A DNA stretch of 64,000 bases, from positions 1-64,000 of the forward strand of contig WSXU01000024.1 in assembly GCA_009773455.1 (NCBI GenBank). The letters run 5' to 3'. Below are positions 2,971-11,562 of this stretch, one piece after another; positions within the stretch are counted from its first letter, which is position 1, and the number at the start of each line of letters is the position of its first letter. This DNA comes from Bacteroidota bacterium (GTDB lineage: Bacteria > Bacteroidota > Bacteroidia > Bacteroidales > Lentimicrobiaceae). A model generated the notes under the pieces. It was not told where the DNA came from. It made no database searches and was given only the letters and a program-made list of their open reading frames with translations. The position numbers and the translations under genes were made by a program.

Positions 2971-3163
2971 GCTCCATGTACTCTTGGTCATAAGGAGGCT
3001 TATAATATTCAGGAGGTGCATATGGACAAATTCGCAACTTCTTTTTGAAGTGAATAGGAAAACTGCGGTATAGCAAATAGGGGATCACCATAGCCAAAAC
3101 AGCTGAAAGAAATCCCGAAACAAAGCCCAAGCCGTAGCGACAAAAGAATTCTGCATAATTCAT
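2924..3163 (-). CDS. Small inner-membrane protein
   Basis: A 79-residue protein with one strong N-terminal membrane segment (GFVSGFLSAVLAMVIPYLLY), then a basic stretch and a proline/tyrosine-rich tail (PPEYYKPPYDQEY). No family recognised. It has its own -7 box at 3193-3200, with operator-like sequence upstream, so it is probably under the same repressor control as the early operon. The 3' end overlaps the convergent gene by 47 bases. Confidence 0.5.
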   Translation of the reverse strand: MNYAEFFCRYGLGFVSGFLSAVLAMVIPYLLYRSFPIHFKKKLRICPYAPPEYYKPPYDQEYMELKDKANHNNCLEKQE

Positions 3164-3192
3164 AGTCGGATTGTTTTAGATTAATGATGTCA

Positions 3193-3200
3193 CAAATATA
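3193..3200 (-). promoter_or_regulatory. -7 box (TATATTTG) of the small membrane gene
   Basis: The same eight bases as the box at 1749-1756, with a matching GATGTC on the downstream side. It lies about 30 bases upstream of the ATG at 3163. The two promoters look like copies of one regulatory module. Confidence 0.65.
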
Positions 3201-3203
3201 ATA

Positions 3204-3274
3204 CAATGTGTTTGATTTCAAACATTACGTTTGTTTTTTAAGCCAATTTTAATACCTATTAAAACATTTTGTTT
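3204..3274. promoter_or_regulatory. Operator cluster upstream of the S24 repressor gene
   Basis: It contains a 16-base inverted repeat TGTTTGATTTCAAACA at 3209-3224 (7-base arms), a half-site ACGTTTGTTT at 3228-3237, and AAACATTTTGTTT at 3262-3274 (5-base arms) ending just before the ATG at 3277. The shared core GTTTGATTT matches the 1757-1795 repeats. These are likely binding sites of the HTH proteins, with the last one placed for autoregulation; binding is inferred. Confidence 0.55.
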
Positions 3275-3276
3275 GA

Positions 3277-3981
3277 ATGAAAAATAAAATACTTGATGCC
3301 GAGAGACTTAAAAAAGTGATCGAATGGTCTGAGTTATCTGCAAATGCATTTGCCAAGAAAATCGGTTATGAGAGCGGGCAAACAGTGTATAATATTTTGA
3401 ACTATGGAAGACCTATAAGCATGCGATTTGCTTTAAGCGTTGTAAATGCTTTTGAACTTATCAGTATTAATTGGCTTTTGACCGGAGAAGGGACTATGAT
3501 CGATGTTGCTTCTAAAAATTCAGAAGTTTTTAATGGGAAATCACAAACTGGGAATGAAGCTGAATCGAAGAAAGAAAGTAGTTGTAAGGAGATACCATAT
3601 TATGATATAGAAGTATCAGCCGGCCCCATTTCATTTTATCAAGACTATCCAGAACTACCACATACTGCTTTGGAAATACCTTTTGTCTCAGACGTCGACC
3701 TGGCTATGCCAGTATATGGAGATTCAATGTACCCACGAATTAAAAGTGGGGATATCGTTCTCTTGAAAAAAATAACGGATCCGGATATAATACTTTTCGG
3801 AGAAGTGTACCTGGTCATCACCAATGATTACAGGACACTGAAGTATGTCCGGAAGCATGAGGATGATAGTAAAATCATCCTGGTTTCAGAGAATGAGAAA
3901 TTCGACCCGGTGACAATCAGGAAAGATTCAATTCTACACTTATTCATCTATAAAGGAAAATTCGAGAAGAGTCAAATATAA
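3277..3981 (+). CDS. CI-like repressor with S24 (LexA-type) self-cleavage domain
   Basis: A 234-residue protein. Residues about 8-75 are an HTH domain ending WLLTGEGTM. Residues about 105-230 are an S24 peptidase domain, with the nucleophile Ser150 in GDSMYP, the general base Lys189 in TLKYV, and a candidate Ala-Gly cleavage bond at 115-116 (SAGPIS). This is the layout of lambda-CI-type repressors that cleave themselves when RecA filaments form after DNA damage. It sits between operator clusters and upstream of the cargo genes, so it is the likely lysogeny switch of the element. Confidence 0.88.
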   Translation: MKNKILDAERLKKVIEWSELSANAFAKKIGYESGQTVYNILNYGRPISMRFALSVVNAFELISINWLLTGEGTMIDVASKNSEVFNGKSQTGNEAESKKESSCKEIPYYDIEVSAGPISFYQDYPELPHTALEIPFVSDVDLAMPVYGDSMYPRIKSGDIVLLKKITDPDIILFGEVYLVITNDYRTLKYVRKHEDDSKIILVSENEKFDPVTIRKDSILHLFIYKGKFEKSQI

Positions 3982-3991
3982 ACTTATCGTT

Positions 3992-4276
3992 ATGACAAAT
4001 TCATCATTTGTTGAGGATGTCTATAAATCTATTAAACCGGGCATACCACAAAAAAAAAGAAAAGAAGTCATTGATGCATTAGGGGATATTCATAAGAAAT
4101 ACCAAGATCTGACTGAAGATGAATTCAAGATCAAATTCTTTCATGAAGCTGACCCAATAATTGATACTTACTCCAGAATCAATCAAAATCAGGAATTAAC
4201 CACAATCAGGATGGTTCTTTACATCTTCCTGATTCTTATGTTTTTATCTGTTCTGATGGGCTTCTTTGTAATGTAA
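3992..4276 (+). CDS. Small tail-anchored hypothetical protein
   Basis: A 94-residue protein. Residues 1-70 are soluble, charged and helical, and residues about 71-94 form one membrane segment (VLYIFLILMFLSVLMGFFV) at the very end. No family recognised. It follows the S24 repressor by 10 bases and precedes the next gene by 6, so it is probably in the same transcript (3277 to 5853 or beyond). AT-rich like the rest of the cargo block. Confidence 0.55.
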   Translation: MTNSSFVEDVYKSIKPGIPQKKRKEVIDALGDIHKKYQDLTEDEFKIKFFHEADPIIDTYSRINQNQELTTIRMVLYIFLILMFLSVLMGFFVM

Positions 4277-4282
4277 GAGATA

Positions 4283-4537
4283 ATGGATAGGCTCAGCCTT
4301 TACAAATACAATCAGCTTTCTAGCGACGAAAAAGCGATTCTTCTCTGGGACCAGGGTATCTATCTAATGAACAGGTTCGAAGGAGTGTATTTGATCAACC
4401 TCCACAGCCTTCTCGATTTCTATGTAGAAGTCTGGTATGATAATGAGAATAACAAAATTGTGAAATTTCGGACGTTTAAAAGCTTGGAAACGTTGGAGCC
4501 TTATTTGGATTTAATTAAGTTGGAACTTGAAAAATAA
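4283..4537 (+). CDS. Small hypothetical protein
   Basis: An 84-residue soluble protein rich in aromatic and acidic residues (LLWDQGIYLMNRF; DFYVEVWYDNENN). I recognise no domain, though the compact alpha/beta look resembles small orphan proteins of Bacteroidota mobile elements. Spacing of 6 bases upstream and 14 downstream suggests cotranscription with the flanking membrane protein genes. Confidence 0.55.
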   Translation: MDRLSLYKYNQLSSDEKAILLWDQGIYLMNRFEGVYLINLHSLLDFYVEVWYDNENNKIVKFRTFKSLETLEPYLDLIKLELEK

Positions 4538-4551
4538 TTCAAATCATTTTT

Positions 4552-5853
4552 ATGAAAACTATTACAATAATTTCTCTGCTAGCCTCTAGCCTCTCTCTAT
4601 TTATTATTTGTTTTAGTATATACATTGAGAGATCTACTTTAGGTAATTTGTTGAAAAACAAGCGAGTTATTCTATTTACAGTTTTATCAGTAGTAGTAAC
4701 AATTATCGAGAAAGTCAGTGGAGGGATAATATCTTCTATTTTCTCAATTAAAACTTACTATATCATTCTTTGCCTATTTCTTATCGGTCTTTTATATTGG
4801 ATTTATCAATTCTTTTTTGCAAAAAAAAGAGACTTATTCAATAAGGCCATTAGCAAAGAGTTTAATCTTGAAGAAATCTTTATTTACCTTTTAGTCTTAG
4901 TAGTCTTTTTCCCTTTTATAACTGATATTGTCCGAATGCGATCTAAGGAGCCAATTGAATTTATTGTCAAAATTAATAGTGATTATGCTAACTTCTCTAC
5001 TCCTAATTCAATAGTAAACTATAATGGAAAAGTTATAATTAAAAATAATACAGATAGGAATTGTAGAATACTTGTCGAAACCATCAGCACACCATTTCAA
5101 AGAATTGAATTCTTGGATTCATTGATGGATATGAATAATAGACAATATATAAATCATACTTACAAAGGGGCAATTGGTTCCAATTCATCTGCTACAATCA
5201 ACTTAGTTGATGAACAAGTCTTGATGCCTAACTTTATCGAAGGAGCGCTTATTGATTCCTTAAATTGGATATTTTCAAATGAATCTCTTGATTACTACAG
5301 TAGTAGGTTCAACTATATTTATCAAAATTTGCTTCCTCAAGATTCATTAACCGACAATGGTTTAAACTTTAAATTTAAATTTCCTGAAATGGGAGTCAAT
5401 TATAGCATTGACTATGATTGGGTTTCAAAAGTTTATATAACTGACAATTATTCAAATGAAGTTTCAGTATTCCGGTTTAAAGGTTCAATGAGACATGACT
5501 TAGGCAGAATGATTCGAGGTGAAGAATTAATCCTCACGCCAGGCGTACTGCAAAATTATTTTATGTTGGAACCAAATTATCTGAAAAACGGTCAATTGAT
5601 GAACTTTACTAAGGGCGCAGTAACTGTGGTTTTTAATGAAGAAGTTGATCTTGCAAAAACCATCTATGAAGAATCCGGAGACAATTACATCTATTCAGGT
5701 GAATTGAATGACAATATTATAATTAATAAAGAAGGCTTTCAGATCAGACATTACATTTATGGTCTATTTATTAGAGATATGCAATTCTACACAAATCTGG
5801 CTAAAAGTTATGGAGTAGAAGTAGATCTGCCATTTAAAAAACGTTCAAAATAA
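4552..5853 (+). CDS. Orphan membrane protein with large extracytoplasmic domain
   Basis: A 433-residue protein. About four hydrophobic segments lie in the first 130 residues (approximately 4-22, 40-58, 66-88 and 110-127), followed by about 300 residues of soluble, beta-rich, asparagine/tyrosine-rich sequence containing a stretch like an immunoglobulin-type or adhesion fold (NYNGKVIIKNNTDRNCRI). No catalytic motif or family is recognised. The gene is strikingly AT-rich. Its position in the lysogenic cargo between the repressor and the restriction system suggests a role in host physiology or phage exclusion; this is inference only. Confidence 0.65.
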   Translation: MKTITIISLLASSLSLFIICFSIYIERSTLGNLLKNKRVILFTVLSVVVTIIEKVSGGIISSIFSIKTYYIILCLFLIGLLYWIYQFFFAKKRDLFNKAISKEFNLEEIFIYLLVLVVFFPFITDIVRMRSKEPIEFIVKINSDYANFSTPNSIVNYNGKVIIKNNTDRNCRILVETISTPFQRIEFLDSLMDMNNRQYINHTYKGAIGSNSSATINLVDEQVLMPNFIEGALIDSLNWIFSNESLDYYSSRFNYIYQNLLPQDSLTDNGLNFKFKFPEMGVNYSIDYDWVSKVYITDNYSNEVSVFRFKGSMRHDLGRMIRGEELILTPGVLQNYFMLEPNYLKNGQLMNFTKGAVTVVFNEEVDLAKTIYEESGDNYIYSGELNDNIIINKEGFQIRHYIYGLFIRDMQFYTNLAKSYGVEVDLPFKKRSK

Positions 5854-5891
5854 TCTCAGACAATGTTCCTTGAGTCATATCAATAAATATT

Positions 5892-6059
5892 ATGACACCA
5901 TGCTCTACATGCGGATCTACCGATGTTAGGAAATTCGTAATTATGCACCGAAAATACCCAATGAAAATTCTAGGACCTTGGTTCTATCTCAAACTATTGC
6001 TCATGGGGAAGCTCGAGGTCCAGTTCTGTAACAAGTGCGGGAGGGTGATTTCGGTGTGA
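5892..6059 (+). CDS. Small zinc-ribbon protein
   Basis: A 55-residue ORF with ATG at 5892 and TGA at 6057-6059. It encodes two CxxC knuckles, CSTC at residues 4-7 and CNKC near residues 46-49, separated by a basic/hydrophobic middle (KILGPWFYLKLLL). The paired knuckles and intact frame support a real zinc-binding peptide. It overlaps the start of the longest form of the next ORF, which favours a later start for that gene. The function is unknown. Confidence 0.55.
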   Translation: MTPCSTCGSTDVRKFVIMHRKYPMKILGPWFYLKLLLMGKLEVQFCNKCGRVISV

Positions 6060-6124
6060 GACGCAATAATCAAATCCTGCTCGATATCCTGATTAAGAAT
6101 GTTAATTCAAAATTGCTAAAAACC

Positions 6125-6673
6125 ATGAAAATGTACTCCCCTACAAATCCTGAAGGATTTGATGATTCCCCTGATAAATTGAACCCCTTGATCAGATTAT
6201 TCATCGTTGTTTTCTTGACTTGGCTCATTTCTTTTTTCATTTTCATAAAAATTTATAATAATCCAAGTACTATCTCAGAATTTGGAGATGCTTTCGGAGC
6301 AATCAATGCCCTTTTTTCAGGCTTTGCATTTGCTGGAATAATCTATACGATATTGCTACAGCGAAAAGAACTAGTATTACAGAGGAAAGAGCTAGTTGAA
6401 ACAAGAAAGGAATTAAGAAGATCAGCTATAGCGCAAGAAAAATCTGAAGAAGCACTAAGAATGCAAATTGAATCAATGAAACTCACTTCTAAACTTAATG
6501 CATTAAATAGCATTGTAGAAGCGTTAAGTCAAGAGTATTCAAGCTTGATGAGTTATGATATTCCAAGTGCTCTGAAAGTTTTAAAAGAAAGAGAGGTCTA
6601 CATGAACCAGATCAAGAAAGCACTAAAAAGTATTGAAGTAGATATAGATCTAGACGATTCGAAAGAGCATTAA
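6125..6673 (+). CDS. Two-TM protein with cytoplasmic coiled coil (Abi-like architecture)
   Basis: About 182 residues from the ATG at 6125 (MKMYSPTNPEGFDD). An in-frame start at 6035 would overlap the zinc-ribbon gene. Two membrane helices (FIVVFLTWLISFFIFIKI and FSGFAFAGIIYTILLQ) flank a segment with the motif FGDAFGAINALFSG. A long charged coiled coil (LVLQRKELVETRKELRR onward) follows. The FGD-FG-NALFSG/AFAG-LLQ pattern recurs in Bacteroidota and proteobacterial membrane proteins, some labelled putative phage abortive infection (putAbiC-like). It ends convergent to the restriction genes, and a defence role is inferred from this setting. Confidence 0.6.
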   Translation: MKMYSPTNPEGFDDSPDKLNPLIRLFIVVFLTWLISFFIFIKIYNNPSTISEFGDAFGAINALFSGFAFAGIIYTILLQRKELVLQRKELVETRKELRRSAIAQEKSEEALRMQIESMKLTSKLNALNSIVEALSQEYSSLMSYDIPSALKVLKEREVYMNQIKKALKSIEVDIDLDDSKEH

Positions 6674-6721
6674 ATATCTATCCAAGTAGATAATTCTATC
6701 TTAGTTTCTTATAATGTTCTC

Positions 6722-8134
6722 TCAAGAGTAGATCACTTTCTCATTTATTTCTGAAATAGCCTCTTGCTCAAGATAGTATGCTTCAGAACGAAGTTCATTA
6801 GCCTTTAAAGCCAAATCATTTATCCTTTTCATTAAATTTCTATCTTCAAGAACAGGAACAGGGACTTTAGCTAAATGAGTATCATCAATCTCATCAACTA
6901 CTGAACCGTAAATATGTCTTTCAACTAACACTCGAGCGTAATCGGTATTTAACCAGATATACAAATAACCTGCAATATCTTTGTTCTTTGGCACTATTCT
7001 GAGTACATGTTGACTCATGGTCCAATTTTCCCAATGCTTAGGAATTATATTTACTTTTCCAATTGTACCACTACATGTTATTGCTATCATATTTTCATGG
7101 AGAAATAATTGTTTAGCGATTCTATCACCATGCTTTTTAACAGACAAATATTTTTTGTTGGTAGGATCTAACTCGTAAATCTGTTTACCTCCAAGAAAAA
7201 CCGTACCATCAGCCTCATCAACATAGATTCGCTTAAAACGACCTGGTAATATGATTTTATCCGAAATTTCAGAATTTCCAATAGGAAGAATAGTCGCCGC
7301 ATTATCTAGCAAGATATCCACAATTGCCAAAGCAATTGGGACATGATAAGATGCATCTAATCTGTCATCTAAAAGATAAAATGGCAAGGAAAAGTTTTTA
7401 AAATCTGCATTTTGATTGTAATGTTCAGCTTTTATTTGGTCAAGCGGTGGTAATTTTAGGGCTTCAATCAATGAATTTTCAGCCTCAAGAATCAAATTAT
7501 TACTTAGGTCTCGTAATTCAAAGGAATGTAAAATTTTATCATTAATTGATTGTCGAATATTTTTATCAGCATAAGGTATCTTAATATTAAACAAATGTTC
7601 TGGTTCTATATGTTGAATTACTGCTCCATAATTATTAGTAAGAAGTACTAATTGGCCTGTTTGTGATTTTAAATAAGAATAAATATATCCTGTATCATTA
7701 ACTTCTTTTGCTGTAATTCTTAATAAGTCATGGCTAAATATTTGATTATCTAGATTATTAGTAACTATAGAACATTTGCCAATAGTGCCAGAGCAGGTCA
7801 TCAATATCTGATTTTTTTTAACTCTTAACCCAGGAATATCTGTTAATGTAAATTCAGAAAGATATAAGCTAGGTTTCGGGCAAATCTCTGTGATTTGCGA
7901 AGGTTGAAAAATTGGGTAATCTGATTTGTCAACATAAATTCTCTTAAACCGTAGCCTATGATAAACATTAGCAATACCCTCTTTCCCGCATAAAGGCTTA
8001 AGTTCATATTTGCATTGTTCAATTTTTGATTTTGCTATCTTAGCTTCAACGTTAAATACTGAAGCCTCTAGTCGAAACTGTGCCTGTTCAACCTCTGAAT
8101 TTGTCACAGTGGTCCATTTCAATGTACTTACCAT
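6722..8134 (-). CDS. hsdS: Restriction-modification specificity subunit (HsdS-like)
   Basis: About 470 residues containing two related halves, each one target-recognition domain plus a helical spacer. RFKRIYVD and TCSGTIGK occur once in each half (first half near residues 60-150, second near 290-360). Each half ends in a helical segment (for example LRDLSNNLILEAENSLIEAL). Two domains imply a bipartite DNA target. The start is taken at 8134 because ATGGTAA there overlaps the methylase stop by 7 bases, a typical coupled arrangement; the longer ORF reaches 8158. It forms a complex with the methylase/nuclease subunit encoded upstream. Confidence 0.88.
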   Translation of the reverse strand: MVSTLKWTTVTNSEVEQAQFRLEASVFNVEAKIAKSKIEQCKYELKPLCGKEGIANVYHRLRFKRIYVDKSDYPIFQPSQITEICPKPSLYLSEFTLTDIPGLRVKKNQILMTCSGTIGKCSIVTNNLDNQIFSHDLLRITAKEVNDTGYIYSYLKSQTGQLVLLTNNYGAVIQHIEPEHLFNIKIPYADKNIRQSINDKILHSFELRDLSNNLILEAENSLIEALKLPPLDQIKAEHYNQNADFKNFSLPFYLLDDRLDASYHVPIALAIVDILLDNAATILPIGNSEISDKIILPGRFKRIYVDEADGTVFLGGKQIYELDPTNKKYLSVKKHGDRIAKQLFLHENMIAITCSGTIGKVNIIPKHWENWTMSQHVLRIVPKNKDIAGYLYIWLNTDYARVLVERHIYGSVVDEIDDTHLAKVPVPVLEDRNLMKRINDLALKANELRSEAYYLEQEAISEINEKVIYS

Positions 8135-10065
8135 GATAGACCCTCTTCTTTTTTCCAATTGGTAAAAACATCTGGTACAAGTATTGTTTGGTCGTCAAGT
8201 TCTAGTTCTTCGTATTCTTCAATATCACCATTTTCGAGAATACGTGTTCGTTTGAAATAAAGAATTTCACCGTCTTTATCTCTTTTATAAATTGGATTTC
8301 CACGCTTATCATGCCCAATTCGTTCAATCATAGCCATGAAAATGGGATAATTGTATTCAGGCTCGTTTGTTTCTTCTATTGTTTTCTTTTGAACAATTAA
8401 AATTGACGTTTGAACACCTGTACTTGGCTGAAATGTATCAGCATGCAAATCAATACTTGCTATTATCCGAGTATATTTTAAAAGCCATTTGCGAATGTGC
8501 ACTAATCCTGGGGCCCCGAGTATACTGTCAGGTAAAACAATGGCTAACCTACCTTTAGGCTTTAAAAATTGCACACAACGTTCAATAAATAATTGTTCAG
8601 GTGGCATTGAATTAGAATTCCGCGAAATATCAAACTGATTTAGAATTGTCCTGTCAGTAATTGGTATTTTGCTACCAAAAGGTGGATTAGTCACTATTAC
8701 ATCGAAATAACCAATTCTATTATGATTAGTCAATTCTTTTAGATTTATATTTAGAGCTTTTGATATTGCTTCTTTAAAATCGACAGACCATTCATGTGGT
8801 GGTAACAATGAATTTTCTCGAAGAATATTGCCACTTCCATCATTGTTCATTACCATATTCATTTTTGTTGCTTTGACTAAGTCAGGATTTATGTCAAAAC
8901 CAAAAAAATTATTACCTGCAACCTCAGCAATCTTACTCCGGACAGTCTGTTTTTCACTATCGTTCCAGCGTTTTTTTTCTTTACCAAACTGGTTTTCTGC
9001 CTTCTTCTCAATTTTTTCGATAACAAGATTCATTGCATTTACTAGAAAACCACCTGTTCCACAACTGCTATCTAAAATATTCTCACCTGGTTGAGGAGCA
9101 ACCATAGCAACAGCCATTTTCATAACGTTACGTGGTGTAAAGAACTCACCACGGTCTCCGCGCAAGTTAGCCCCAACAATCTCCTCATATGCTTTGCCTT
9201 TTACATCAATATTTGTATCAAGCAAACTATATTTTTGAATTTCACCAACAATATTTGCAATTGTTCTTGGATTCAAAGCAATTTTATCATTTGCCTCAAA
9301 TATTTTTTGATATTTAGCTTTTACCTTATTAAATATTCTATCGATTCTGTTTTTGACGGTTAGTTGTCCATCCGGATTATTACGTTCCTTTGAAGTAACA
9401 TAAAATTGAATATCTTCTAGAATATTACGCTCATCTTCAATTTTGCAAAATATCATTTTAAGTAATTCGAAAAAGGCAGGTTGTTTCTGCATTCCTTCAT
9501 TTACATAAATATGATTGTGGCACTTTTTAAAAGCAAACAAAAGATTATCTCCAATAGCCTTTTTCTGAGTGTCTCTTTTAGGTCTATCTATTTCCTCAAT
9601 ATCAGCACCATAAGAAGGAATATCATTATAATCCTCGTAATCCCAATTGCCTTTTTGATTTTTAATTTTTCGAAATACTTCCTTTTCTTTGCCATTTGTC
9701 CACATACCCCATTCACAATTAGGACAGACAGCCATGTAGGTTTTCAATTGCTCAACTCCTTCTTTTTTGTCTGTAGATGGAATTGTTTCCTTTTTACATT
9801 CAACAATTAGGTATATGTTTTTTTGGTCAAAGTCAGTTGTGTCTTTTGGAAAAAGAGCAATATCAACACGTTTACTTGCAGAAGCTTGTTTGATTGAAAA
9901 CTCAATCTTGATTAAATTCTTTGGGAAACTATGTTCATTAACCAAACGCTTTTCAATATTTTGTCGAACATATTCCTCAGGCGTATCGTTACGAAATGTA
10001 TGATCAATATAATCTCGAATCTTGCCCTCAGGAACCGTAATAACTTGCGAATCTTTATTCTGCAT
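8128..10065 (-). CDS. Fused PD-(D/E)XK nuclease and N6-adenine methyltransferase (BcgI-like RM subunit)
   Basis: A 645-residue protein. The N-terminal 130 residues form an HSDR_N-type nuclease fold, with Asp68 in VDIALF, Glu89-x-Lys91 in VECKK and a QxxxY motif (Gln106, Tyr110). A linker is followed by an N-6 methylase domain from about residue 290, with FFTPRNV, SAM motif I DSSCGTGGF (332-340) and the catalytic NPPF (460-463). An adenine methylase carrying its own nuclease and paired with a separate two-domain specificity subunit matches the two-gene layout and approximate size of BcgI-like type IIB systems. No separate HsdR is present in the window. A promoter box lies at 10094-10101. It could instead be an orphan type I methylase whose nuclease domain is inactive, but the catalytic residues look intact. 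Confidence 0.88.
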   Translation of the reverse strand: MQNKDSQVITVPEGKIRDYIDHTFRNDTPEEYVRQNIEKRLVNEHSFPKNLIKIEFSIKQASASKRVDIALFPKDTTDFDQKNIYLIVECKKETIPSTDKKEGVEQLKTYMAVCPNCEWGMWTNGKEKEVFRKIKNQKGNWDYEDYNDIPSYGADIEEIDRPKRDTQKKAIGDNLLFAFKKCHNHIYVNEGMQKQPAFFELLKMIFCKIEDERNILEDIQFYVTSKERNNPDGQLTVKNRIDRIFNKVKAKYQKIFEANDKIALNPRTIANIVGEIQKYSLLDTNIDVKGKAYEEIVGANLRGDRGEFFTPRNVMKMAVAMVAPQPGENILDSSCGTGGFLVNAMNLVIEKIEKKAENQFGKEKKRWNDSEKQTVRSKIAEVAGNNFFGFDINPDLVKATKMNMVMNNDGSGNILRENSLLPPHEWSVDFKEAISKALNINLKELTNHNRIGYFDVIVTNPPFGSKIPITDRTILNQFDISRNSNSMPPEQLFIERCVQFLKPKGRLAIVLPDSILGAPGLVHIRKWLLKYTRIIASIDLHADTFQPSTGVQTSILIVQKKTIEETNEPEYNYPIFMAMIERIGHDKRGNPIYKRDKDGEILYFKRTRILENGDIEEYEELELDDQTILVPDVFTNWKKEEGLSW

Positions 10066-10146: not shown

Positions 10147-11364
10147 TCAAAGTATTTGAATCAACTTTATGTTCGCCTCCCATATCCGGCTAAAGTCCCG
10201 GGCCACATAGATATCTGTTACCCTCATCACGTCATCAACATGGTTCAGAGCTTCATGGACCAGGTACTTATCAATCTCACAATCATTCACAGCGATGGTT
10301 GCCCAGCTGTGCCTGGCAGCATAAAAAGTAAGATCCGGGATTCCCACTGCAGCTCCCACCTGCTTTAACCCTTTGTTCAGGGCTGAATTAAAATTATTGG
10401 AAGTTCCGTACTTCTTATAAAACCTGAACACCCGTGATCCGGTTTTATCGCGATATTTCTCAACCAATGCCTGAGCTTCAGGTTCAATCCGGATCTGCAT
10501 CATTGCACGGTCCTTCCTACGAGTGGCAGTCTTCTGCCGGTAGTAGGTGATCATATTCCCCTTAAGCTCGCTGCAGGTATACAGGTCTGCAGCATTCATC
10601 CCAACAAGGTAGAAAGAAAGCATAAAACAATCCCGGGCCAGGTTCATCCGGATATCCTTCTCCCCTATCTCCAGATCCCGGATGCTCCGGATCTGGTCAA
10701 TTGACAAGGCTCGCTTCTTTGTTTCTTGAACGACCGGTACTTTATATTTTACAAAGGGAGAAACCCTTACTTTGATTACCCCATGGTCCTCATCGTTAAA
10801 CTCAACCTTGGCCATATTTATCAGCTTCCGGAAGATCCCTGTGTAAAGTGAAATTGCCCGTCCCTTCACTGGGGTATCAGTTTGCTTAACCGGTACTGTC
10901 CTTAACCAGGATTCATATTCCCCCAGGAACTTTGCTGTGATATTGTTTATTGGGAGATGCTCATCACCGGTGAACCGGATCAGGCTGTTGAGAGCTGTTA
11001 AAATATTTGAAGCATTCCCGGTCCTACCCTGTTTCTTCAACTTTTCTGCAACACCTCTTCCAAACTCTATGAAATCAATACCTTCAGCCTTGGCCATGGT
11101 TAGGACTGAAATAACCTCATCGCTCGACATTGCATTCACCTTGAGCCCCAGCTCCATGATCGTCTTCCGGTATTGACCCAGGAGATCATTAATCTTCCCC
11201 TGGATATACTCACTCTTCACGTTCCCTGTTCTGGTCAGATCTCCCTTGGTGACGTATATATCTGTCCTGATTGGCCTGGACTCCCTTTTGTGTGTCATTC
11301 GGATGATGACCCGGGCAGTACCATCAGATTTGAAATAAGGAATTGTCGGTTTGAAGGTTGGCAT
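10147..11364 (-). CDS. int: Tyrosine recombinase / phage integrase
   Basis: About 405 residues from the ATG at 11364. The longer ORF (11397) is rejected because a promoter box lies at 11395-11402. It has an N-terminal arm-binding region, a SAM-like core-binding domain (about residues 95-180), then the catalytic domain. Catalytic residues seen are Arg351 (AARH), His375 (ALNH) and nucleophile Tyr386 (TDIY), with a beta-hairpin Lys near 278. The position of the first catalytic arginine reads SFYLVGMNAADLY, apparently without Arg; IntDOT-type integrases of Bacteroides elements also lack the first arginine. Its codon use and GC resemble the host more than the cargo genes. It lies directly beside tRNA-Gly, the expected target. 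Confidence 0.9.
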   Translation of the reverse strand: MPTFKPTIPYFKSDGTARVIIRMTHKRESRPIRTDIYVTKGDLTRTGNVKSEYIQGKINDLLGQYRKTIMELGLKVNAMSSDEVISVLTMAKAEGIDFIEFGRGVAEKLKKQGRTGNASNILTALNSLIRFTGDEHLPINNITAKFLGEYESWLRTVPVKQTDTPVKGRAISLYTGIFRKLINMAKVEFNDEDHGVIKVRVSPFVKYKVPVVQETKKRALSIDQIRSIRDLEIGEKDIRMNLARDCFMLSFYLVGMNAADLYTCSELKGNMITYYRQKTATRRKDRAMMQIRIEPEAQALVEKYRDKTGSRVFRFYKKYGTSNNFNSALNKGLKQVGAAVGIPDLTFYAARHSWATIAVNDCEIDKYLVHEALNHVDDVMRVTDIYVARDFSRIWEANIKLIQIL

Positions 11365-11394
11365 TTTCTGAAACAATTCTGCAACAATTGTCAG

Positions 11395-11402
11395 CAAATG
11401 TA
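11395..11402 (-). promoter_or_regulatory. -7 box (TACATTTG) of the integrase gene
   Basis: TAnnTTTG on the minus strand about 31 bases upstream of the integrase ATG at 11364. It decides against the longer integrase ORF. Confidence 0.6.
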
Positions 11403-11461: not shown

Positions 11462-11490
11462 CATATAACCAAAGTATTCAAAATCAATCG

Positions 11491-11562
11491 AGCGGAAAAC
11501 GGGGATTGAACCCGCGACCTCCAGTTTGGGAAACTGGCGCTCTACCACTGAGCTATTTCCGC
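11491..11562 (-). tRNA. tRNA-Gly(CCC)
   Basis: A full cloverleaf on the minus strand. Acceptor strands GCGGAAA and TTTCCGC pair perfectly, the D arm is GCTC/GAGC, and the anticodon stem CCAGT/ACTGG carries loop TTCCCAA (anticodon CCC at 11528-11530). The T arm contains GGTTCAATC. No CCA is encoded. The mobile element and its integrase lie immediately on the 3' side, so this tRNA is the likely integration site; the distal att copy is not in the window. Confidence 0.95.

What the first reader, a model, noticed from the sequence alone, without database searches (positions are those of the whole stretch)
6722..10065. Self-contained restriction module: nuclease-methylase fusion plus two-domain specificity subunit
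One polypeptide carries Asp68, Glu89-x-Lys91 and QxxxY of a PD-(D/E)XK nuclease together with an N6-adenine methylase. Its partner has two target-recognition domains and overlaps it by 7 bases. No HsdR is present. This fits BcgI-like type IIB enzymes, which excise a short fragment around the site, in a lysogenic cargo position suited to excluding other phages.
Basis: partly seen in the sequence, partly recalled or inferred. Interest (0 to 1): 0.55.

Follow-up and report, generated by a model that had tools for sequence, protein, structure and literature searches.

The report
Two-gene cut-and-methylate phage defence enzyme
A mobile element carries a two-gene restriction enzyme that should both mark and cut DNA by itself; it is an ordinary kind of enzyme, but its closest relatives inside a larger defence system called MADS have lost the cutting part.

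Summary
Window 8128-10065 (-) encodes a 645-aa PD-(D/E)XK nuclease/N6-adenine methylase fusion; 6722-8134 (-) encodes a specificity subunit with two target-recognition domains, overlapping it by 7 bases. No HsdR N-terminal domain was found in the 95%-complete assembly. Best explanation: a self-contained restriction-modification enzyme of the RM+S (type IIB-like) kind. BsaXI is the top match among solved structures by sequence profile and by fold. Cutting on both sides of the site is inferred, not shown.

In 80 relatives across many phyla the pair is the only widely conserved unit, and E55, D68, E89, K91, Q106 and Y110 are identical in all 81 proteins.

In 13 of 13 MADS-like loci the Mad2 nuclease lost E-x-K and the Q of Q-x-x-x-Y; the methylase motifs are kept in the 11 where both were read. 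None of 112 loci with an intact nuclease carries a Mad7- or Mad8-like gene. More distant relatives keep the nuclease, so the loss is probably derived: MADS probably grew from a disarmed enzyme of this kind.

The enzyme itself is a new member of a known kind. Prophage status is plausible but unproven, because the contig begins at window base 1.

The parts
8128..10065 (-). RM gene: N-terminal PD-(D/E)XK nuclease fused to gamma-class N6-adenine methylase, 645 aa
   Evidence: model pLDDT 84.5
9616..9981 (-). HSDR_N_2 nuclease domain, residues 29-150
   Evidence: Pfam 9.2e-27; place also
9736..9864 (-). stretch from D68 through E89-x-K91 and Q106 to Y110, nuclease active-site residues
   Evidence: invariant 81 of 81; D68, E89, K91 align with D90, E105, K107 of BsaXI (alignment, numbering mine), essential by mutation (PMC11997821, passages)
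8374..9210 (-). N6-adenine methylase domain, residues 286-564, with motifs DSSCGTGGF and NPPF
   Evidence: Pfam 2.3e-33; motifs
6722..8134 (-). S gene from the ATG (470 aa; alternative TTG start at 8158): two target-recognition domains and two long spacer helices
   Evidence: (TRD1 vs TRD2 37% identity over 151 residues, 3e-28)
8128..8134 (-). 7-base overlap: RM terminal Trp codon and stop share the S start codon
   Evidence: terminal Trp in 79 of 81, ATG or GTG at -7 in 79 of 81
10147..11397 (-). tyrosine recombinase of the host element
   Evidence: Phage_int_SAM_5 2e-13, phrog_1 1.7e-12
11490..11562 (-). tRNA-Gly(ccc), probable integration site next to the integrase
   Evidence: a second, full tRNA-Gly(ccc) with a 43-base identical 3' part lies on another contig
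3277..3981 (+). S24 CI-like repressor of the element

Best explanation
A self-contained restriction-modification enzyme of the RM+S (type IIB-like) kind, carried by an integrated mobile element. Two RM chains are inferred to assemble on one S subunit; each S half would recognise one half of a split site. The methylase marks an adenine in each half-site of the carrier's DNA. On unmarked incoming DNA the N-terminal nuclease cuts, probably at fixed distances on both sides of the site, without ATP-driven translocation. Shown here: both genes, domains, intact catalytic residues under strict conservation, a two-TRD S subunit, coupled overlap, and no HsdR found. Inferred: stoichiometry, methylation, cleavage, cutting on both sides, and phage exclusion. 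By descent it belongs to the lineage that also gave Mad2-Mad5 of MADS, in which the nuclease has decayed.
For: Domains. Catalytic set E55/D68/E89/K91/Q106/Y110 invariant in 81 of 81 and in 105 of 105 rows of a wider, partly redundant set. RM and S are the only genes shared by most of 81 loci, the next family being in 12. An S gene or part of one was found in 79 of 81 loci; the other two run off the contig within 328 and 155 bases. BsaXI is the best PDB match by profile (2.2e-57), Foldseek (2.4e-26) and VIA-align (Z 27.8, 529 residues, rmsd 8.5). The S model matches type I-like S subunits and BsaXI S (Z 15.4 and 13.9). No HsdR N-terminus in the genome. 231 of 2,628 pairs of S proteins share one TRD above 70% but the other below 50%, as expected if half-sites are exchanged, though a faster-evolving TRD1 would also do it.
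Against: No biochemistry. BsaXI is only 19-25% identical in the structural alignments, and the nuclease part alone scores weakly by sequence. E55 aligns with BsaXI E75 (not among the inactivating mutations) rather than E73 (essential). Both NCBIfam names are MADS components, although below their cut-offs. Cutting on one side only, or nicking, is not excluded.
Confidence: 0.8

Rival explanations
1. A reduced or remnant MADS: only Mad2-Mad5 remain, acting as methylation module of a system whose other parts are lost or lie elsewhere.
For: NCBIfam best hits are MAD2 (594 bits, cut-off 720) and MAD5 (344, cut-off 400). The cut-off is not a clean divide: three MADS-like loci also miss it (L192 671, L203 692, L204 680 bits).
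Against: MADS-like Mad2 has lost the nuclease in 13 of 13 loci; this one has it intact. Its score is in the range of the stand-alone pairs (594-650 bits for those printed). Of 112 loci with an intact nuclease none has a Mad7- or Mad8-like gene at 1e-5, against 13 of 13 MADS-like loci. No protein in the own genome passes the MAD2 cut-off; Mad6, Mad7 and Mad8 were not searched for in the rest of the own genome.
Confidence: 0.06
2. A type I-like methylase whose N-terminal nuclease domain has a regulatory or structural role, with restriction done by another protein.
For: HSDR_N-type domain; the methylase is close to type I HsdM by sequence and fold.
Against: Strict conservation of all nuclease residues, and their loss where the other MADS genes are present. 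No HsdR in the genome.
Confidence: 0.07
3. A self-contained RM enzyme that cuts on one side only (type IIG-like) rather than excising the site (type IIB).
For: Type IIG enzymes share R-M-S architecture and fold (BpuSI Z 18.3, DrdV Z 20.4).
Against: Separate S with two TRDs and matching spacer helices implies two RM per site, the architecture of the enzymes listed as cutting both sides (Table 4 of PMC3874165, passages; section 29 of PMC11997821).
Confidence: 0.12

Closest known systems
BsaXI (type IIB, RM + S; cryo-EM 8w0p, 8w2p, 8w2q)
   Same: Nuclease-helical connector-gamma N6A methylase in one chain, separate two-TRD S; D and E-x-K of the nuclease align.
   Different: 645 against 916 aa; only 19-25% identical in structural alignments. 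No room for BsaXI's knob and paddle (inference from length); a short C-terminal helix instead, as described for the other RM+S type IIB enzymes (section 29 of PMC11997821).
BcgI and other RM+S type IIB enzymes (BaeI, CspCI, NgoAVIII)
   Same: Two-gene 2RM:1S organisation with N-terminal cleavage domain (PMC3874165 passages).
   Different: No BcgI sequence available here; direct homology not measured.
Mad2-Mad5 of MADS (methylation-associated defense system)
   Same: Best NCBIfam matches for both proteins; 37.5% identity over 93% of the query to Bacteroides finegoldii Mad2.
   Different: Mad2 has lost E-x-K and the Q of Q-x-x-x-Y in 13 of 13 MADS-like loci, which all carry Mad6-, Mad7- and Mad8-like genes; the window pair stands alone with an intact nuclease.
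Type I HsdM/HsdS
   Same: Methylase and S folds.
   Different: Nuclease fused to M; no HsdR found.

Membership tests
Type IIB RM+S | N-terminal PD-(D/E)XK nuclease fused to gamma-class N6A methylase | tested here: met
Type IIB RM+S | separate S subunit with two TRDs and two spacer helices | tested here: met
Type IIB RM+S | no separate translocating R subunit | tested here: met
   N-terminal domains of HsdR searched, within a 95%-complete assembly
Type IIB RM+S | homology to a characterised type IIB enzyme | tested here: met
   BsaXI is best hit, 2.2e-57 by profile, mostly over the methylase; BcgI not compared
Type IIB RM+S | (RM)2S assembly | not testable with these tools
   no complex prediction available
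Type IIB RM+S | double-strand cuts on both sides at fixed distance, m6A in both half-sites | not testable with these tools
   needs digestion and long-read methylation calling
MADS | Mad2 and Mad5 over the curated NCBIfam cut-offs | tested here: not met
   594 against 720; 344 against 400. Weak criterion: three MADS-like loci also miss the MAD2 cut-off
MADS | Mad6/Mad7/Mad8-type genes beside Mad2-Mad5 | tested here: not met
   neighbours are integrase and small element genes; relatives with intact nuclease lack Mad7/Mad8-like genes
Type I restriction | HsdR subunit | tested here: not met

The most novel reading that the evidence does not exclude
The MADS defence system grew out of a self-contained enzyme of this kind. 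Its Mad2-Mad5 core is a disarmed type IIB-like nuclease-methylase that kept methylation and site recognition, lost cleavage, and passed the killing step to recruited partners (Mad6, Mad7, Mad8). The stand-alone pair in this window is a living, still armed sister of that core. No locus examined combines an intact nuclease with Mad7- or Mad8-like genes (0 of 112, against 13 of 13 MADS-like loci with a dead one).
Probability: 0.6. Interest if true: 0.6.

Novelty: new member of a known kind. Interest (0 to 1): 0.4.

Why it matters
The enzyme alone is one more restriction system on a mobile element. Its family is more useful: a compact, highly conserved pair found in bacteria, archaea and phages that gives MADS, whose restriction step a 2026 review still lists as unknown (PMC12904381, passages), a likely ancestor and a testable prediction: methylation and recognition stay with Mad2-Mad5, and cleavage cannot come from Mad2. 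It also predicts that the pair alone should restrict phages in a laboratory strain.

Tried and rejected
Remnant MADS as the identity of the window pair: rejected mainly on the intact nuclease and the two-gene family. The score cut-off is weaker evidence, because three MADS-like loci also miss it.

Second att site: a 23-base tRNA-Gly 3' pattern (up to 2 mismatches) found only two places, both full tRNA-Gly(ccc) genes, so the element's far end was not located. Terminase: phrog_2 gave three weak hits in the own genome (best 1.5e-6), likely other ATPases; other terminase families were not searched.

Independent double loss of the nuclease: one tree rejected a single dead clade (p-AU 0.0215, 43 rows); a tree with more MADS-like rows did not (p-AU 0.268, 40 rows). 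One loss or two stays open; the group was named after seeing the first tree.

Against the neat association: two loci with an intact nuclease have a kinase-like frame that partly matches Mad6, L041 (90 bits, 28%) and the distant L207 (62 bits, 86 residues). I read these as ordinary kinase domains. L149, a Streptomyces plasmid protein, has a dead nuclease but no MADS neighbours within 14 kb and no S gene annotated there. L148 keeps the Tyr of Q-x-x-x-Y, though not the Gln.

Mad2 homologues in viral contigs with a Piscinibacter query: none confirmed. Further samples for MAD2-type proteins gave no new MADS-like locus (for example 0 of 299 over the cut-off in one phylum).

Literature: searches for MADS listed papers that mention it, not the original paper. 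Passages of PMC12904381 and PMC11842806 were seen; in PMC12926258 and PMC12707154 the passages shown did not treat MADS. Maestri 2024 was seen only as a reference entry. Whether the loss of the Mad2 nuclease is already in print is therefore not known to me.

Rows dropped: L004 (stop inside the coordinates given) from the structure alignment. The last tree used 40 proteins chosen by me; L181_M2b, L149 and L155 were left out. All three are dead.
Full report
What is there. The larger protein (645 aa) has an HSDR_N_2 nuclease domain at residues 29-150 and an N6-adenine methylase at 286-564; the smaller has two Methylase_S stretches. Counting from the ATG at 10065, D68, E89, K91, Q106 and Y110 are as described. 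The S gene begins at ATG 8134, overlapping the RM end by 7 bases; a TTG at 8158 would give 31.

Family. A scan of species genomes gave 291 relatives, of which the best 80 were kept, 56-70% identical, in Bacillota, Bacteroidota, Poribacteria, archaea and others by record title. With the window that makes 81 loci. After clustering neighbouring genes (blastp 1e-6, over half the length), only RM (81 loci) and S (79 loci) are common; the next family occurs in 12 loci. The two loci without S run off their contig within 328 and 155 bases; some others have a short, displaced or split S, such as L041 and L078. E55, D68, E89, K91, Q106 and Y110 are identical in 81 of 81. The RM protein ends in Trp in 79 of 81, and an ATG or GTG for S lies 7 bases before the RM end in 79 of 81: the pair looks translationally coupled and the last codon is shared. 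Among 73 full-length S proteins of 80, median pairwise identity is 45% in TRD1 and 53% in TRD2, against 65% for RM; 231 of 2,628 pairs share one TRD above 70% but the other below 50%. That fits exchange of specificity, though a faster TRD1 would also give it. The two TRDs of the window protein are 37% identical to each other over 151 residues. The family is uncommon: in a sample of 395 genomes of the window's own phylum, 4 have a match above 590 bits to the MAD2 model, the window's genome included; three are stand-alone pairs and one (G337) is MADS-like.

Fold. With an alignment of 41 proteins the RM model has mean pLDDT 84.5; its best solved match is BsaXI by Foldseek (2.4e-26) and by VIA-align (Z 27.8, 529 residues, rmsd 8.5), as it is by sequence profile (2.2e-57). 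The large rmsd probably reflects domains placed differently (my reading). The S model (pLDDT 86.9) shows TRD, long helix, TRD, long helix and matches PacII S (Z 15.4), type I S subunits and BsaXI S (Z 13.9). In the BsaXI paper (passages and section 29 read) alanine at E73, D90, E105 or K107 in the nuclease domain abolishes cutting. D90, E105 and K107 correspond to D68, E89 and K91 here (alignment, numbering mine); E55 aligns with E75, which is not among the inactivating positions, so its role is not settled. The paper states that the RM+S type IIB enzymes other than BsaXI carry a lone helical tail after the methylase; the window model likewise ends in a helix (630-641).

No HsdR. PF04313 finds nothing in the own genome but rings in 9 of 14 control genomes. 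PF13588 finds this RM and a 176-aa frame on another contig.

Relation to MADS. NCBIfam names both proteins as MADS components, MAD2 (594 bits, cut-off 720) and MAD5 (344, cut-off 400), both below cut-off. All 13 carry Mad6-, Mad7- and Mad8-like genes (the query proteins come from L090 and L093, so those two match themselves). Nine of the 13 Mad2 pass the NCBIfam cut-off (760-1031 bits), three miss it (L192 671, L203 692, L204 680), and L148, whose gene is split, was not scored. In all 13, E89, K91 and Q106 are replaced (where L192 appears as its shorter locus L094). Methylase motifs CG[TS]GGF and NPPF remain in the 11 whose motifs were printed in full; for L148 only the first was covered, and L204 was not printed for these. 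Two loci on short contigs, L155 and L205, are also dead.

Against this, 105 of 105 rows in the stand-alone and viral group have the intact set, and so have L193, L206 and the distant L185-L189 and L207, except that L185 lacks E55. The rows are not all independent: for example L018/L024, L053/L190, L005/L124 and L092/L134 look like the same or nearly the same sequence. Searching the neighbourhoods of 114 loci (112 with a nuclease read as intact, L149 with a dead one, L139 not read) with Mad6-, Mad7- and Mad8-type queries and one AAA-ATPase query from L090, at 1e-5, gave no Mad7- or Mad8-like gene and two kinase-like frames that partly match Mad6, in L041 and L207. Of the 80 genome loci, 62 are longer than 12 kb, so a distant partner could be missed in the shorter ones. 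Exceptions on the dead side: L149, a Streptomyces plasmid protein with dead nuclease but no MADS neighbours, and L181_M2b, a second Mad2 copy inside a MADS locus whose methylase motif is also altered.

Direction of change. In trees built without the nuclease columns, MADS Mad2 and the stand-alone enzymes separate, and six more distant nuclease-methylases (L185-L189, L207) all keep D, E-x-K and Q-x-x-x-Y. Taking these as outgroup, the nuclease was lost on the MADS side. They are long branches and the root split is weakly supported (74/95). L094/L192, the MADS-like locus of G337 whose Mad2, Mad5, Mad7 and Mad8 matches are all below the NCBIfam cut-offs, groups with the stand-alone side in two trees and is unresolved in the third. 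A single loss was rejected at p 0.02 in one data set and not rejected, p 0.27, in the one with more MADS-like rows.

Context. The pair lies next to an integrase, with a tRNA-Gly(ccc) beyond it. G+C is 31.5-34.3% in the 1-kb bins from 4 to 10 kb and 39.5-48.9% in those from 11 to 20 kb. An S24 repressor at 3277-3981 marks a lysogeny-type region. The contig begins at window base 1, so the rest of the element is not visible. The closest viral relative, 69% identical, lies between portal/terminase and capsid genes of a tailed phage (L123). A Mycobacterium prophage carries a 45% relative, and a Skermanella plasmid carries a 54% relative with the same overlapping pair beside a recombinase. So carriage by phages and other mobile elements is established for the family, and plausible for this copy.

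Judgement. Self-contained restriction by this pair is well supported; cutting on both sides is likely by architecture only. The enzyme is an ordinary member of a known kind. What raises the interest is that it probably shows what the MADS core looked like before it was disarmed, which makes the unknown restriction step of MADS easier to test.

Noticed in passing
L181 (G441), 3022-7142: Two Mad2 genes in tandem inside one MADS locus; the second has lost the nuclease and has NPWF in place of NPPF in the methylase.
   Followed up: partly
L192 (G337): MADS-like locus: 592-aa Mad6-like, Mad7-like, dead Mad2, Mad5-like and a 1701-aa Mad8-like protein with a HerA/TraD-like ATPase at its C-terminus; the Mad2, Mad5, Mad7 and Mad8 matches are all below the NCBIfam cut-offs.
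   Followed up: partly
L149, 13887-16103: Streptomyces plasmid Mad2-like protein with dead nuclease, no S gene annotated beside it and no MADS neighbours.
   Followed up: partly
L123, 7995-11338: Close relative of the pair in a tailed-phage genome, on the strand opposite to the packaging and head genes around it.
   Followed up: yes
L041, 3542-5146 and L207, 15111-16298: Kinase-like frames with partial Mad6 similarity near an intact nuclease-methylase.
   Followed up: no
window 3992-6673: Proteins of no clear family between the repressor and the S gene, some with hydrophobic stretches; superinfection exclusion is a guess.
   Followed up: no
own genome, G000:C19:81731-83137: A second N6-methylase frame of 873 aa with weaker MAD2-model similarity.
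   Followed up: no
own genome, G000:C62:15842-16153: A 176-aa frame with an HSDR_N_2 nuclease domain.
   Followed up: no
L148, 13980-15991: Mad2 of a Phocaeicola plasmid is split into two frames.
   Followed up: no
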